Translations under genes and position numbers: made by a program
Notes under the pieces: model-generated
The model's input: the letters and a program-made list of their open reading frames with translations, nothing else
What the model was told of the DNA's origin: nothing
The model's database searches: none
In this document: in pieces, positions 21,462-27,540 of the stretch
Layout of the letters: every line of letters starts with the position of its first letter
Position numbering within the stretch: the stretch's first letter is position 1
Assembly (NCBI GenBank): GCA_015075425.1
Contig: JABTUL010000001.1
Coordinates: forward strand, 1-64,000
Source of the DNA: Spirochaetales bacterium
Lineage (GTDB): Bacteria; Spirochaetota; Leptospiria; Leptospirales; Leptonemataceae
DNA length: 64,000 nt
Direction: 5' to 3'

Positions 21462-21809
21462 TTGCAGAGCTGGTGGAAAATTGTATTTGATGCCCGTGCT
21501 CGAATCATTACGATCACACGCGGGGAAGAAAAGGTGTGGGTTACTTACGGATTACAGACGATGGATCAGGAATCCGGCCCAATGCAGAGGGCCAGCCGGA
21601 TTTTCGTTATGCGGCCACTCATATTTGTGACTCTGTTAAAAGACGGCAAAACATATGAAATGCGCATGCGGAAGGGCGATCCTTCCTTTGTCAATTTATA
21701 CGGAAGAAAATTTGTAAACTACGAGGGCCTGCTGGCTCTTGAGGTATTGGCCGGCAACATAGCATTGTTCATTTTTGGCTTGATTTTCCAGGTGCATGCA
21801 TGCTGCTAA
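21462..21809 (+). CDS. hypothetical protein with C-terminal membrane segment
   Basis: This is a protein of about 115 residues if it starts at TTG 21462. A short beta-rich part (WWKIVFDARARIITITRGEE, then FVTLLKDGKTYEMRMRKGD) is followed by a terminal hydrophobic helix (LAGNIALFIFGLIFQV). The frame is open from inside the kinase gene, and no ATG gives a convincing start. It overlaps the next gene by ten bases. The family is unknown. Confidence 0.4.
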   Translation: MQSWWKIVFDARARIITITRGEEKVWVTYGLQTMDQESGPMQRASRIFVMRPLIFVTLLKDGKTYEMRMRKGDPSFVNLYGRKFVNYEGLLALEVLAGNIALFIFGLIFQVHACC

Positions 21810-23020
21810 TGCTGGTGTTATTTAGCCGCATTCTGCTCCTCCCGTTTCTGGCGTCCTGCACGTTCTATCAGGTCGATTGTGATGCCCTGGACTCAGCGTG
21901 CAATCCGCTGCGCTTGAATTTGCTTTATGGTTTTAGATCCAGTGCCAGCATTTGTTCCGCCGCGTATCATGAATTGATTCTGCCATCAGCCTGGCCGCAG
22001 GTCCAGGCAGAATTGCGCGCCCAGGCAGCAAAAGGAAATTATGGCAGTCCATCAGCCACACTTTTCGGGCCGAGTCCTGGGGTGGGCAGCGCCTATGTAG
22101 GCGGAGTCCTTGCCCCCAATGGTATCATTTATGCGATTCCGCACTCCGCCACAAGCGTGGCCCGCATTGATCCGCGTTCCAATACCGTTACCTTTTTTGG
22201 GAGCCTGGCCGGTACGACCAAATGGGCGGGAGGCGTGTTGGCTTCAAACGGAAAAATTTACGCCTTTCCCTTTGGAGCGACCACGACATCTGTCCTCGTG
22301 ATTGATCCTGCTTCAGATTCGGTATACCAGTTTGGCGCGGTCTCAGCTGTTGCCGACAAATGGGCGGGAGGAGTTCTGGCTTCAGATGGACTGATCTACG
22401 GGATGGCCACCTCCGAAACGGCGGTTCTGGCAATTGATCCGCAATCCGACTCGCTGACTGCATGGGGGTCTTTGACCGGAAAAAGCGGGGCCGTGCTTGC
22501 GCCAACGGGGAAAATCTACGCCTTTCCTGTTACCGGCGGCGCGCCGTACGCTGCTGTTGATCCAGATGCGCGCACAGTAACTGCTTTTGGTGCCGCACCG
22601 GCCGGCGCTACGCCCTTTCTTGGCGGAGCTCTGGCGCCAAACGGAAAGATTTATGCGCTGCCGGCAATTGGCTCCGCCTACAGTGAAATTGATCCGGCCA
22701 CTCATGCAGTCGTTGATTTTGGCAGTCCCCCGGCCGGGGTGGGAGGCTTTGTCGGAGGCGTGCTGGCCCCGGACGGAAAGATCTATGGAATTCCCAACGG
22801 AAGCGGAGGTACTTACGTTGCCCTGGACCCGGATTCCCTTCAGGCTCCCACCTTCGGGACGATTGCCGGAGGCGACCTTTACCAGAGCGGCGTACTGGCT
22901 CCCAATGGAAAAATCTATGGAATACCCTTTAACGCGGGATCGTTTCTGGAAATCGATCCACGTGCGAACGGAACCTTGTGTCCGGCAATTCTGCAGTCGG
23001 CCTATCTCAATAAGTTTTAG
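21800..23020 (+). CDS. seven-bladed beta-propeller lipoprotein
   Basis: This 406-residue protein has a lipoprotein-like leader (LFSRILLLPFLASC, lipidated Cys at about 16). After about 85 residues it carries seven repeats of about 40-45 residues, each built as GGVLAPNGKIYAIP, then xxIDPxSxxVxxFG. Seven such blades fit a closed beta-propeller. The repeat resembles surface lipoproteins with a ligand or polymer-binding role. No catalytic motif is visible. It ends just before the left copy of the 44-bp direct repeat. Confidence 0.65.
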   Translation: MLLMLVLFSRILLLPFLASCTFYQVDCDALDSACNPLRLNLLYGFRSSASICSAAYHELILPSAWPQVQAELRAQAAKGNYGSPSATLFGPSPGVGSAYVGGVLAPNGIIYAIPHSATSVARIDPRSNTVTFFGSLAGTTKWAGGVLASNGKIYAFPFGATTTSVLVIDPASDSVYQFGAVSAVADKWAGGVLASDGLIYGMATSETAVLAIDPQSDSLTAWGSLTGKSGAVLAPTGKIYAFPVTGGAPYAAVDPDARTVTAFGAAPAGATPFLGGALAPNGKIYALPAIGSAYSEIDPATHAVVDFGSPPAGVGGFVGGVLAPDGKIYGIPNGSGGTYVALDPDSLQAPTFGTIAGGDLYQSGVLAPNGKIYGIPFNAGSFLEIDPRANGTLCPAILQSAYLNKF

Positions 23021-23024
23021 TTGC

Positions 23025-23068
23025 GCCGCACTTGAGGCAAGTCCGTTACCGGGAATTCAGTGCATCGC
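23025..23068. repeat. 44-bp direct repeat, left copy
   Basis: This is identical to 26575-26618 except for one base (A at 23035, C at 26585). On the minus strand it spells the last eight codons and stop of the acyl-carrier-like gene at 26596-26919 (DALNSR then TAA), but without the rest of that gene. The two copies bracket a 3.5-kb two-gene segment. Confidence 0.85.
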
Positions 23069-23215: not shown

Positions 23216-24823
23216 ATGAAGGCGATAAAAACAGGATTGTCAGTATTTGCGATACTGTCCAGTTTTCTGGGGTCGGGCTGCGCCCCGACGTCTGAAAATT
23301 CTCGGTCAGACGCACAACTTGTCCTGGTGGGCTACCTGCTGGGCATTTCAAGCGATTCGACTTCCTCTGGTTCTTCTGAATACAATGGTCCTCTGGCCAT
23401 CCGTCTTCTCGGTGCGCGCTATCCCCATAATTCCAAATTTGATTTTGGCAGTGCAAATGTTGGCACTGGAATTGGTTATTTTGCCACGATAGAAAACGAT
23501 GAGGACAGTCCACAGATAATTGACAGTATAGAATTCTCAGGGATCCATTCAGCTGATTTCGATTGGTTTCCATTGTTCCCCGGTCTTCCGGTTACCATTG
23601 GCGCGCTGTCATCCGAAGATATGCTGCTCGGTTTTTTTCCATCGGCAGCCGGGTCTCGGGAGGGAAAAATCAACATTCAAGGTTTGCAGCTCAACTTGAC
23701 GGGGACCGGAACGACTGCTCCGGCGCCCCAGGAAATACGGTTAGTCGGACCTTCCGGAGAAATTGCCAGCGGCGGAGGCTATGATTTTGGTAACATTGCA
23801 GTTAGTGGCTCCTCTGGAGCTTTAACTTTTACCATAAACAATTCGGGAGGAACAGCTCTGAGTCTCACCGGCACTCCTAAAGTCGCTCTTGCAGGTGCAA
23901 ATGCCGCCGAGTTTAGCGTAAATGAAACAAGTACAACTTCACCGGTGGCAGCCAGCGCATTCACCACATTCACTGTGACATTTTCTCCAACCAGTGCCGG
24001 AGCCAAAAACGCGAGCGTGAGTATTGCAAACAACGACGCCGACGAAAACCCATTTACGATCAATCTTTCCGGGACAGGTGTACAACAGGAAATAAGAATT
24101 GATGGACCGTTCGGTGAAATTGCCAGTGGTGGCAGCCATAATTTTGGCAATGTTACCGAAGGCTCTTCTTCGGACGCGGTTGCTTTTACTGTCATGAACA
24201 CCGGCGGCGTTGCTTTAAGTTTGACTGGAACACCCAAAGTTGTCCTTGCTGGTGCGAATGCGGCAGAATTCAGCGTCAATGAGACAGGTACTACTTCGCC
24301 GGTGGCAGCCAGCGGATCCACCACATTCACTGTGAGCTTTTCTCCAGCCAGTCCCGGAGGGAAAAGTGCCAGTATAAGTATTGCAAACAATGATTCCGAC
24401 GAAAATCCTTATGAGATCCAGCTATCCGGAACGGGTCTGGCATCAGTCCCGGACCTGGAAGTAAAGCTCGGGGGTTTAACGATCAACAACGGAGGCACCG
24501 TTGACTTCGGTTTCAACCCTCAGTGTCCTGTGAGCGACAAAACATTCACTATCAAGAATAACGGAACTGCAAATCTCACCTTGAGCGCAACTCCCAGAGT
24601 ACAATTGAGCGGAGTGCAGGACAACGTGTTTATAGTAAATTCTCAGCCGACCAGTCCGGTCGTTCCGGGGAGTTCCACGGCTTTCATTATTCAGGCTTGC
24701 CTTGTTCCCTTTCCCGCCGGGTCGTTTACTCGCGCTACGGATAGTGCCACAGTGAGCATTGATAGCGATGACCCCGACTTCCCTAATTTCAGCTTCACTG
24801 TGACTGCAACTTTTGGCTGCTGA
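23216..24823 (+). CDS. ASPM-SPD-2-Hydin repeat lipoprotein
   Basis: This is a 535-residue protein from ATG 23216. The leader ends in SSFLGSGC, a spirochaetal lipobox. Four immunoglobulin-like domains of the choice-of-anchor D (ASPM-SPD-2-Hydin) type follow: FDFGSANVGTG, YDFGNIAVSGSS, HNFGNVTEGSSS and VDFGFNPQCP. The middle two are near copies with an exact offset of 357 bp (119 codons), so they arose by recent duplication. Such lipoproteins are surface or periplasmic binding scaffolds. The stop overlaps the next gene by 11 bases. Confidence 0.75.
   Translation: MKAIKTGLSVFAILSSFLGSGCAPTSENSRSDAQLVLVGYLLGISSDSTSSGSSEYNGPLAIRLLGARYPHNSKFDFGSANVGTGIGYFATIENDEDSPQIIDSIEFSGIHSADFDWFPLFPGLPVTIGALSSEDMLLGFFPSAAGSREGKINIQGLQLNLTGTGTTAPAPQEIRLVGPSGEIASGGGYDFGNIAVSGSSGALTFTINNSGGTALSLTGTPKVALAGANAAEFSVNETSTTSPVAASAFTTFTVTFSPTSAGAKNASVSIANNDADENPFTINLSGTGVQQEIRIDGPFGEIASGGSHNFGNVTEGSSSDAVAFTVMNTGGVALSLTGTPKVVLAGANAAEFSVNETGTTSPVAASGSTTFTVSFSPASPGGKSASISIANNDSDENPYEIQLSGTGLASVPDLEVKLGGLTINNGGTVDFGFNPQCPVSDKTFTIKNNGTANLTLSATPRVQLSGVQDNVFIVNSQPTSPVVPGSSTAFIIQACLVPFPAGSFTRATDSATVSIDSDDPDFPNFSFTVTATFGC
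23730..24437 (+). repeat. tandem 357-bp intragenic duplication
   Basis: Two in-frame units, about 23730-24086 and 24087-24437, share long identical protein blocks such as LAGANAAEFSVNE and TTSPVAAS. They encode consecutive Hydin-type domains. The high similarity suggests the repeat number can change by recombination. Confidence 0.7.
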
Positions 24824-26549
24824 GATCCACTCCGAATACATTGCTCTGCCCTTCCGGCTGCGCTACCAGAGTTACGCGGATGAACTCATCGAGAACACCG
24901 CAGGTCAAATGTTACATATGCCTGCAGGAACTGCGATGCTACTGTCCAGCCTGGCGCAGTTTCAAGATAGGCGCATAACGCTGGATCGATTGCGAAAGCA
25001 AGGCCTCGAACCTGGCCTTGATGTATTTGAGCAATGCGCGGCGGCCGGTTTGATCGCAAGTGCAAGGGAGATCCTGGAGGAGTGCAAAATCCAGGCCGGG
25101 GCGGTCAAAAGTGGCAATCTGGTATCATTGTGCTGGCTTGCCTGTAATAGGCCCGATTCGCTTGCAGCCAGTATACGCAGTGCATTAAATGATGGCCCAA
25201 CGAAAGTCCGGGAGCTGCAATTCCATGTCTTTGACGACAGCGTGGCGGATCGCGAAGGGATTGCGCGGGCTATCACAGCGATAGAAAAAGAATATAGCTG
25301 CACGATTGCATTACATGATGATGCAGCCAAACGGCAATACTTAAAACGCCTGAATCTTTCTTCAGAAGCTTCGAAACTGGCGCATTTTGCACTATTCCCA
25401 AACGCCCAACCTTCAACGGGCGGAAATCGAAACGCTGTTCTGCTGATGACAGCCGGTCAGAAAATTCTTTGCCTCGACGATGACATTCGGCTAACCTGCT
25501 ACCGTCCGCATTTGGAGCCGCCCCGGTTCAGCTCCGCCTATTTAACCGGGGATTGGTACATGTTTCCATCGATTATTGAAATCACAGATTTTTTGGACTC
25601 AAACTGCAAGCCGGCACACGCTGAATTTGTAGACTTTCATTCGGAGGCGTTACAAAATACTCCAGCGGAGATCGCGCTGGGAGAGAATTCGTGGCGCTCT
25701 CTCACACCTGAACTGGCGAATAAGTTATTGACACACTCATTGCAAATACGCGTGACTTCATCCGGGAGCTATGGCGACTCAGGTCTCGCCAGTCCAGCGC
25801 ATGCGCTTTTTCTGGACGGAGAGATGCGACAGCATTTGCTCCGCGATGCGGATACTTATCGCAGGTCCATTGCCAGCCGTCAGCTGCTTCGTATGAATAA
25901 AGGCCTGACCATCAAGCGCTCCACGCAACTGATGGGCATGAGTCTGGGGCTTGATAATTCGGCATTGCTTCCTCCTTTTTTTCCGGCCTTCCGGAATTCG
26001 GATGGTCTTTTTGCATCCTGCCTGGTCCTCTGCTTTCCAGAGGCTTGCCTTGCTGATCTACCCATCATGCCAGGCCATATTCCGCCCGGATTCCGCCAGC
26101 ACGATCATAAAGACTTATTTGAGATCCCCTGGCGTGTGCCTGAGATATTGCATTCGCTCATTCATGCCTGCCCGGAACCCTTAGCTTCTTCCGGCATCGA
26201 AAATATGAGAGAACTTGCTCGATTCATTCAGTACAATACGGTAAACGAAGAGGTTTTTCAATCTTGCATCATCGAACAACGGCGAAAGGCCCTGCTTCAA
26301 CAACTTCAACAGCTTGATGGACTCCTCGAAAAATTTTATGCTGAGCCAAATTTCTGGGCAGAAGATGTCGAGAAGCGTTGCGATAGAATCTTTGATCTCT
26401 TAAAAAAAGAAAGCTGGCCCATCAACGCTGGAGATGGCAGTGAAGTGGTCCCGTATGTGACCGCACGAGAATTATTGCGGAAATACGCTATGTTACTGGA
26501 AATCTGGCCCGAGATTTACGCGAGAGCGACAGAGCTGAATTCCAACTGA
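24813..26549 (+). CDS. unrecognised protein: PqqD-like N-terminus plus glycosyltransferase-like core
   Basis: This is a 578-residue protein. Residues 20-90 (ENTAGQMLHMPAGTAMLLSS, then a helix pair ending AAAGLIAS) resemble the winged-helix PqqD/RRE fold that binds leader peptides. From about 105 a GT-A-like unit appears: NLVSLCWLACNRPDSLAASI, then LQFHVFDDS and ILCLDDDIRL (a DxD-type metal site near residue 230). The remaining 330 residues are helical and unfamiliar. It is coupled to the Hydin-type lipoprotein gene and lies inside the 44-bp repeats. A role in sugar modification of a peptide or lipoprotein is a guess. Confidence 0.45.
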   Translation: MAAEIHSEYIALPFRLRYQSYADELIENTAGQMLHMPAGTAMLLSSLAQFQDRRITLDRLRKQGLEPGLDVFEQCAAAGLIASAREILEECKIQAGAVKSGNLVSLCWLACNRPDSLAASIRSALNDGPTKVRELQFHVFDDSVADREGIARAITAIEKEYSCTIALHDDAAKRQYLKRLNLSSEASKLAHFALFPNAQPSTGGNRNAVLLMTAGQKILCLDDDIRLTCYRPHLEPPRFSSAYLTGDWYMFPSIIEITDFLDSNCKPAHAEFVDFHSEALQNTPAEIALGENSWRSLTPELANKLLTHSLQIRVTSSGSYGDSGLASPAHALFLDGEMRQHLLRDADTYRRSIASRQLLRMNKGLTIKRSTQLMGMSLGLDNSALLPPFFPAFRNSDGLFASCLVLCFPEACLADLPIMPGHIPPGFRQHDHKDLFEIPWRVPEILHSLIHACPEPLASSGIENMRELARFIQYNTVNEEVFQSCIIEQRRKALLQQLQQLDGLLEKFYAEPNFWAEDVEKRCDRIFDLLKKESWPINAGDGSEVVPYVTARELLRKYAMLLEIWPEIYARATELNSN

Positions 26550-26574: not shown

Positions 26575-26618
26575 GCCGCACTTGCGGCAAGTCCGTTACC
26601 GGGAATTCAGTGCATCGC
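26575..26618. repeat. 44-bp direct repeat, right copy (3' end of carrier-like gene)
   Basis: The copy covers the last eight codons and stop (TAA at 26598-26596) of the minus-strand acyl-carrier-like gene and its first downstream bases. These include the small dyad GCCGC-ACTT-GCGGC. It matches the left copy at 43 of 44 positions. Integration or duplication at a gene 3' end is the simplest explanation. Confidence 0.85.
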
Positions 26619-26919
26619 GCATATACTCGGAAATCGAACGTATTGTGTTTGCTTCTGTAAACATTCCTTTCGACAAAAACAGGCTCAGTTCGTTAGCAAC
26701 GAAATTTCTAATTTCCGTTGCTGTTTGCTCGTTCACTCCGAGGGATGCGAAAGAGTCGTCAGGATTCAGGTGTTCTGCCTTCCGACTGGTGTTCAGGGCG
26801 ATCACACGCGTAACGTAGGCAATGATTTTGTCCAGTTGTTCTGTGCTATCCTTGACGTTCACCAGAGAATCGCGAACTTCGGATTTGAAAGAATCATCTG
26901 CGCCGCTGTTTGAATCCAT
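26596..26919 (-). CDS. acyl-carrier-like protein lacking the phosphopantetheine serine
   Basis: This is a 107-residue protein whose residues 28-105 follow the four-helix carrier pattern: DDSFASLGVNEQTATEIRNF, then LFLSKGMFTEANTIRSISEY. In active carriers the motif is LGxDSL; here it is LGVNEQ, with Glu-64 where the modified Ser should be. It therefore cannot carry a thioester by the known route and may act as a protein-protein adaptor. It lies 18 bases downstream of cysC on the same strand, so the two are probably co-transcribed. Its 3' end is duplicated 3.55 kb away. Confidence 0.65.
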   Translation of the reverse strand: MDSNSGADDSFKSEVRDSLVNVKDSTEQLDKIIAYVTRVIALNTSRKAEHLNPDDSFASLGVNEQTATEIRNFVANELSLFLSKGMFTEANTIRSISEYMRDALNSR

Positions 26920-26937
26920 TTTTTTACCTCTAAAATA

Positions 26938-27540
26938 TCAAATTGTGTAAGGAAGATTGGAGCGGTACAGCACTTGCCGATCGCGTAGAAGGACGCGCAG
27001 CATTTCCAGTCCTGTTTCCAGTGTGACCGAGTCCGTGGGTATGGTGAGGTCAGGTTTGTAGGGCTCTTCGTAAGGAGAGCCCTTGCCCGTCAGGTTGGAA
27101 AGCTGCCCGCTACGCTCTTTGCGGTAAAGGCCTTTTACGTCTCGTCTTTCGCAAATCTGTAAGTCGCATTTCACAAAAATTTCCAGATAGTAATCATTGC
27201 CAATGCGGGCCCGGGCGGCCTGCCTGTCCCTTAGATAAGGAGCGATGGCGGCCACGCAGACCACGTAACCTTCTTTGAGAAAGAGAGCCGCCACCTCTGT
27301 GATCCGCCGGATGTTCTCTGAGCGGTCCTCACGCGAGAAGCCCAGATCAGAACACAGCCCGTTACGCAAATCGTCGCCATCTAACAGGACCACTGGCACA
27401 TGGGAGCGAATCAGCTCTTGCTGTAGAGCCGTGGCCAGAGTTGTCTTTCCGGCCCCGGAAAGCCCGGTAAACCAGAGCAGCGCCGGGCGATGGCGATCGG
27501 GGACGGCCTGAAAATGGAATCGCGATAAGGTATCACTCAT
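26938..27540 (-). CDS. cysC: adenylylsulfate (APS) kinase
   Basis: This is a 200-residue protein from ATG 27540. The P-loop GLSGAGKTT is at 26-34; LLDGDDLRNGLCSDLGFSRE, the Arg in DRSENIRRI, and the lid KGLYRKERSGQLSNLTG follow. It phosphorylates adenylylsulfate to PAPS, the donor for sulfotransferases. No sulfate adenylyltransferase (cysDN) or PAPS reductase is present in the window. That fits a role in sulfation rather than assimilation, for example with the fusion enzyme at 10466-11830. It is divergent from recG and precedes the carrier-like gene. Confidence 0.92.
   Translation of the reverse strand: MSDTLSRFHFQAVPDRHRPALLWFTGLSGAGKTTLATALQQELIRSHVPVVLLDGDDLRNGLCSDLGFSREDRSENIRRITEVAALFLKEGYVVCVAAIAPYLRDRQAARARIGNDYYLEIFVKCDLQICERRDVKGLYRKERSGQLSNLTGKGSPYEEPYKPDLTIPTDSVTLETGLEMLRVLLRDRQVLYRSNLPYTI

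What the first reader, a model, noticed from the sequence alone, without database searches (positions are those of the whole stretch)
26596..27540. Serine-less acyl carrier-like protein downstream of cysC
The motif LGVNEQ replaces LGxDSL. The gene follows an APS kinase by 18 bases and shares its 3' end with the repeat. A non-acylated carrier fold linked to PAPS supply is unexpected.
Basis: partly seen in the sequence, partly recalled or inferred. Interest (0 to 1): 0.55.

Follow-up and report, generated by a model that had tools for sequence, protein, structure and literature searches.

The report
Orphan serine-less carrier-fold protein by cysC
A small bacterial gene next to a sulfate-activating enzyme encodes a protein shaped like the carriers used to build fats and polyketides, but it has lost the one residue needed to carry anything; it has no close relatives in the genomes searched, so whether it is a working adaptor or a leftover cannot yet be told.

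Summary
A 107-aa ORF (26596-26919, minus strand) starts 18 nt after an APS kinase gene (26938-27540, minus). It scores as coding, passes Pfam's cut-off for carrier proteins (PF00550, 24.2 against 20.8 bits) and, given an alignment with six carriers, is modelled as a type I PKS-like ACP fold (pLDDT 82.9). The phosphopantetheine serine is replaced by Glu64 (LGVNEQ for LGxDSL), at the first residue of helix II; two flanking motif residues differ too, so it is not one point mutation. Its last 23 nt lie in a 44-nt direct repeat (43/44) whose other copy is at 23025-23068. None of 33 other APS kinase loci has a carrier beside it. The genome encodes CysD, an APS-reductase-type CysH and one sulfotransferase, so CysC probably supplies PAPS for sulfation. 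Linking APS kinase to carrier modules is known (SulI of sulfazecin). Best reading: an unmodifiable, PKS-ACP-derived helical adaptor co-expressed with CysC. Close rival: a decaying relic. Modest interest; new variant of a known kind.

The parts
26596..26919 (-). 107-aa serine-less acyl-carrier-fold protein (Glu64 at the phosphopantetheine position)
   Evidence: ORF; PF00550 24.2 bits, cut-off 20.8; coding score; model and fold matches
26716..26739 (-). codons of G61-V-N-E-Q-T-A-T68, with E64 in place of the serine
   Evidence: coordinates counted from the ATG at 26919
26920..26937 (-). 18-nt gap with AGAGGT 7 nt before the ATG, a plausible ribosome-binding site
   Evidence: inference from sequence
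26938..27540 (-). cysC, APS kinase, 200 aa (P-loop GLSGAGKTT, DGDDLR, FSREDRSENIRR, KGLYRK present)
   Evidence: PF01583 190.4 bits; TIGR00455 over cut-off; aligned with human PAPSS1 APS kinase domain
26575..26618 (.). right copy of the 44-nt direct repeat; covers the last 23 nt of the ACP-like gene
23025..23068 (.). left copy of the 44-nt direct repeat, intergenic, just after the 406-aa gene
   Evidence: no other copy of its 20-nt core (up to 2 mismatches) in the own genome
23177..26549 (+). two-gene unit between the repeats (ASH/HYDIN-like lipoprotein and a 578-aa protein, weak GT2 match); a neighbour, probably a separate cassette
   Evidence: same pair in G015 without carrier or CysC

Best explanation
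The gene encodes a free-standing protein with the four-helix acyl-carrier fold, most like type I polyketide synthase ACPs, including an extra N-terminal helix. It cannot be phosphopantetheinylated at the normal place because Glu64 stands where the serine should be, so it cannot carry acyl groups in the usual way. It is probably made together with APS kinase (CysC). I think it most likely works by non-covalent binding: as a small helical adaptor or regulatory partner of CysC, or of an enzyme that uses its product PAPS. Shown: the ORF, the motif, the carrier profile match, the gene order. Inferred from a model guided by carriers: the fold. Inferred only: co-transcription, loss of modification, and the adaptor role.
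For: Profile match over Pfam's cut-off. Type I PKS ACPs head the sequence matches to solved structures, though at E 0.011 and above. AlphaFold2 with six carriers gives pLDDT 82.9 and helices 5-21, 25-44, 64-78, 86-89, 93-106, helix II starting at Glu64; Foldseek's five matches at E<=0.001 are all carrier domains or synthases that hold one, and VIA-align gives Z 15.0, rmsd 2.0, 93 aligned, to the ACP chain 9d2z_C. Coding score. DSL is replaced by NEQ while residues around it (TA.EIRN, E69) still match PKS ACPs, which suits a fold that was kept after the attachment site was lost. The own genome has two other PF00550 proteins, and by the call's counts no PKS or NRPS carrier for it to stand in for; both others keep the serine. 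CysC looks catalytically complete. CysH is of the APS-reductase type (ECC...CAPC) and a sulfotransferase is encoded, so PAPS for sulfation is the likely output.
Against: No homologue conserves the pair: 0 of 33 other CysC loci have a carrier, and no close relative of the protein was found, so selection for the fold is not measurable. Folded alone, the model is poor (pLDDT 60.0) and its best structure matches are meaningless. No binding partner is known. The only Pfam-detected sulfotransferase lies 1.2 Mb away. The protein may simply be decaying.
Confidence: 0.4

Rival explanations
1. Relic. The gene is what remains of a carrier domain from an acquired APS kinase-carrier module (compare SulI, where APS kinase is fused to an NRPS initiation module) or of a lone PKS ACP. 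It lost the serine by drift and does nothing now.
For: No conserved relatives, and no CysC or ACP beside recG in 8 relatives, so the pair is a local acquisition or a fast-changing locus. Lower G+C (0.463) than cysC (0.556). The repeat at its 3' end points to rearrangement. Precedent for APS kinase joined to carrier modules: PMC11298585 passages.
Against: Reading frame, start signal and codon usage are intact, and the fold-type residues are kept while three motif residues changed.
Confidence: 0.38
2. A loaded carrier with a non-standard attachment residue, for example Thr66 or a nearby serine (Ser59), still serving an acyl or sulfated intermediate.
For: A carrier with a 'variant phosphopantetheinylation-site' is named in the title of PDB 2afd (title only). 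The own genome has a 4'-phosphopantetheinyl-transferase-like ORF beside its second ACP (by my reading of the sequence, not scanned).
Against: No hydroxyl residue at the helix II start; Glu64 takes the place. No assembly line in the genome.
Confidence: 0.07
3. Not a carrier at all: an unrelated small helical protein that resembles the profile by chance.
For: Single-sequence model poor with no structure match; identity to carriers 14-25%; the better model was guided by carriers.
Against: Full-length match over a curated cut-off at E 4e-05, again 24.5 bits in the whole-genome search; independent NCBIfam PKS and ACP models match the same part at E 4.7e-05 and 0.0014, both far under their own cut-offs.
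Confidence: 0.1

Closest known systems
Type I polyketide synthase ACP domains (e.g. mycolactone MLSA2/MLSB ACPs 5hv8, 6h0q; mycocerosic acid synthase ACP 9d2z)
   Same: Helix order with an extra N-terminal helix, length, motif frame LGxxxx followed by T..E.R
   Different: Free-standing; serine replaced by Glu; no PKS in the genome
SulI of sulfazecin biosynthesis: APS kinase plus carrier-bearing NRPS module in one protein (PMC11298585, passages seen)
   Same: APS kinase encoded together with a carrier
   Different: SulI's module works on a loaded substrate (an initiation module for D-glutamate, per the passage seen); here the two are separate genes, no adenylation domain is next to them, and the carrier cannot be loaded at the usual site
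Saxitoxin cluster: sxtO (APS kinase) with the ACP domain of SxtA (PMC2679770, passages seen)
   Same: PAPS supply and a carrier domain in one gene cluster
   Different: There the carrier is predicted to be loaded with acetate and is not a partner of the kinase
Anabaena Asl1650 (PDB 2afd), ACP with a variant attachment site (title only)
   Same: Free-standing ACP fold with an altered motif
   Different: I could not read its paper (one search found none), so which residues vary was not checked

Membership tests
PF00550 PP-binding carriers | Profile score over Pfam's cut-off | tested here: met
   24.2 bits against 20.8; 24.5 bits
PF00550 PP-binding carriers | Four-helix carrier fold | tested here: inconclusive
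   Met in the model built with six carriers, not in the single-sequence model
PF00550 PP-binding carriers | Serine for 4'-phosphopantetheine at the start of helix II | tested here: not met
   Glu64
Functional acyl carrier protein | Phosphopantetheinylated in vivo or in vitro | not testable with these tools
   Needs mass spectrometry
APS kinase (CysC) | PF01583/TIGR00455 over cut-off; P-loop, DGD, KGLY motifs | tested here: met
   (motif names recalled)
Conserved cysC-carrier gene pair | A carrier gene next to cysC in other genomes | tested here: not met
   0 of 33 other CysC loci; one of these (L022) holds only about 100 nt downstream

The most novel reading that the evidence does not exclude
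The first seen member of a class of permanently unloaded (apo) carrier-fold adaptors that bind APS kinase or a sulfotransferase and steer PAPS to one sulfation reaction, with Glu64 standing in for the negatively charged phosphopantetheine site.
Probability: 0.1. Interest if true: 0.6.

Novelty: new variant of a known kind. Interest (0 to 1): 0.27.

Why it matters
If the protein works, it would be a carrier fold put to use without its prosthetic group and tied to PAPS supply, and the two-gene operon is small enough to test directly. If it is a relic, it is ordinary gene decay. As it stands it is one orphan gene in one genome.

Tried and rejected
The pattern scans need exact short peptide matches and can miss distant relatives.

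Link with the neighbouring 578-aa protein: rejected as partner, because its relative in G015 comes with the lipoprotein gene but without a carrier. An integrase or transposase reading of the repeat was not supported: and the Pfam scans the segment holds only the lipoprotein and the 578-aa ORF among long ORFs; no other copy of the repeat core is in the own genome. Integron-like attC was considered by eye and dropped. Promoter and terminator scans gave 5 and 8 sites against 4.1 and 6.5 expected, so no use was made of them. PHROGs and PADLOC gave nothing for the carrier-like protein. Paper searches for serine-lacking ACPs or for an APS kinase-ACP pair gave no direct precedent; the library misses most subscription journals. 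PMC4552970 and PMC4728517 passages were not relevant.

Full report
What is there. On the minus strand, cysC (27540-26938) is followed after 18 nt by a 107-codon ORF (26919-26596). The ORF has a plausible ribosome site and codon usage like the window's other genes: 0.193 in frame, all five other frames negative, 0 of 2000 shuffles as high. It matches PF00550 at 24.2 bits (cut-off 20.8) over residues 35-99. Against solved structures, type I PKS ACPs rank first, though only at E 0.011 and above.

The missing serine. Alignments to PKS ACPs and to six carriers put Glu64 on the attachment serine: LGVNEQ for LGxDSL. The Glu codon GAG is at least two base changes from any serine codon (from the genetic code), and the residues on either side of it (Asp to Asn, Leu to Gln) differ too, so one recent point mutation does not explain it. 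The genome has two other PF00550 proteins (3 matches in all); both have serine at the place.

Fold. A single-sequence AlphaFold2 run was poor (pLDDT 60.0) and Foldseek found nothing of use with it. With six carriers in the alignment pLDDT rose to 82.9; Foldseek then gave 5 matches at E<=0.001, all carrier domains or synthases that hold one, and VIA-align Z 15.0, rmsd 2.0, 93 aligned, to the ACP chain 9d2z_C. The second model leans on the carriers that I chose, so it shows that the sequence is compatible with the fold, including an extra N-terminal helix, rather than proving it. Helix II begins at Glu64.

The APS kinase. CysC is well over the cut-offs of PF01583 and TIGR00455, keeps the P-loop, DGD and KGLYRK motifs, and aligns along most of its length with human PAPSS1's APS kinase domain. 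The rest of the pathway is in the genome: a CysD-like protein and a CysH-like protein, found among 3 PF01507 matches, two over the cut-off. CysH carries KECC and CAPC, the pattern of iron-sulfur APS reductases (that pattern is recalled), so it would not need PAPS. One PF13469 sulfotransferase is encoded at C1:1235718. PAPS from CysC therefore most likely feeds sulfation. No gene next to the pair says which molecule is sulfated.

Relatives and gene order. No close homologue was found: 0 in the 21 other genomes of the held family apart from one PKS-like hit, 1 PKS-like hit besides the own gene in 392 phylum genomes, none in phages, two PKS-like plasmid hits, none confirmed in viral or species genome scans. 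CysC itself is patchy: 3 of 21 other family genomes, 24 of 392 in the phylum with the own one counted. ORFs of 45 aa or more in 35 loci were scanned with a carrier profile: the own locus and a PKS control locus (L025) rang, and 0 of 33 other CysC loci did. One of the 33 (L022) holds only about 100 nt downstream of cysC, and many hold about 1.5 kb. In 8 relatives with 3.7-14 kb held upstream of recG, neither CysC nor the carrier was there. In one relative (G008, L014) cysC is followed by an ORF that I read as a sulfotransferase (read by eye, not scanned).

The repeat. The 44-nt direct repeat (23025-23068 and 26575-26618) flanks a two-gene unit: a lipoprotein with ASH/HYDIN-like domains and a 578-aa protein with a weak GT2 match. 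The same pair lies in G015 without a carrier or CysC in the 4.3 kb held. The simplest reading is that this pair was inserted, or rearranged, at the 3' end of the carrier gene, with duplication of the 44 nt; the gene's reading frame ends inside the repeat and is not cut. This is inference: the empty site was not found in another genome.

Mechanism. Shown: orphan coding gene, carrier profile, no serine, next to cysC. Inferred: co-transcription and no pantetheinylation. Proposed: a non-covalent adaptor of CysC or of a PAPS user (0.40), against a decaying carrier relic (0.38), an unrelated helical protein (0.10), or a carrier with another attachment residue (0.07). The first two are nearly even because the deciding evidence, selection across orthologues, is absent.

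Known comparisons. APS kinase together with carriers is known: SulI holds both an adenylylsulfate kinase and the initiation module (PMC11298585, passages), and the saxitoxin cluster has sxtO with the ACP of SxtA (PMC2679770, passages). N-terminally extended PKS ACPs are reported (PMC6382882; listing and start of abstract only). Searches for serine-lacking ACPs in the open library found no match to this case; that is weak evidence of absence. By its membership test the protein is carrier-like but not a functional carrier.

Noticed in passing
23025-23068 and 26575-26618: 44-nt direct repeat (43/44) flanking a lipoprotein plus 578-aa gene pair that also occurs as a pair in relative G015 (L008); looks like a cassette insertion with a long duplication, but no recombinase was recognised in it.
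   Followed up: partly
26938-27540 (-): CysC has IAPY where 17 of the 18 CysC ORFs with a readable motif (own included) have ISPY, ISPF or VSPY; the serine there is the phospho-serine of E. coli CysC (recalled), so both neighbours lack a serine typical of their families.
   Followed up: partly
G000 C2:1003505-1004026 (L048): CysH carries ECC...CAPC, the iron-sulfur APS reductase pattern (recalled), so sulfate assimilation need not pass through PAPS.
   Followed up: partly
24813-26549 (+): 578-aa protein without a curated family (weak GT2 match, E 0.23), with one relative at 30% identity in 60 other genomes searched.
   Followed up: partly
21800-23020 (+): 406-aa protein with seven copies of a GGVLAPNGKIYG-like repeat at about 130-nt spacing.
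   Followed up: no
about 52672 and 57760: Exact direct repeats of 33 nt or more at 72-nt and 33-nt spacing.
   Followed up: no
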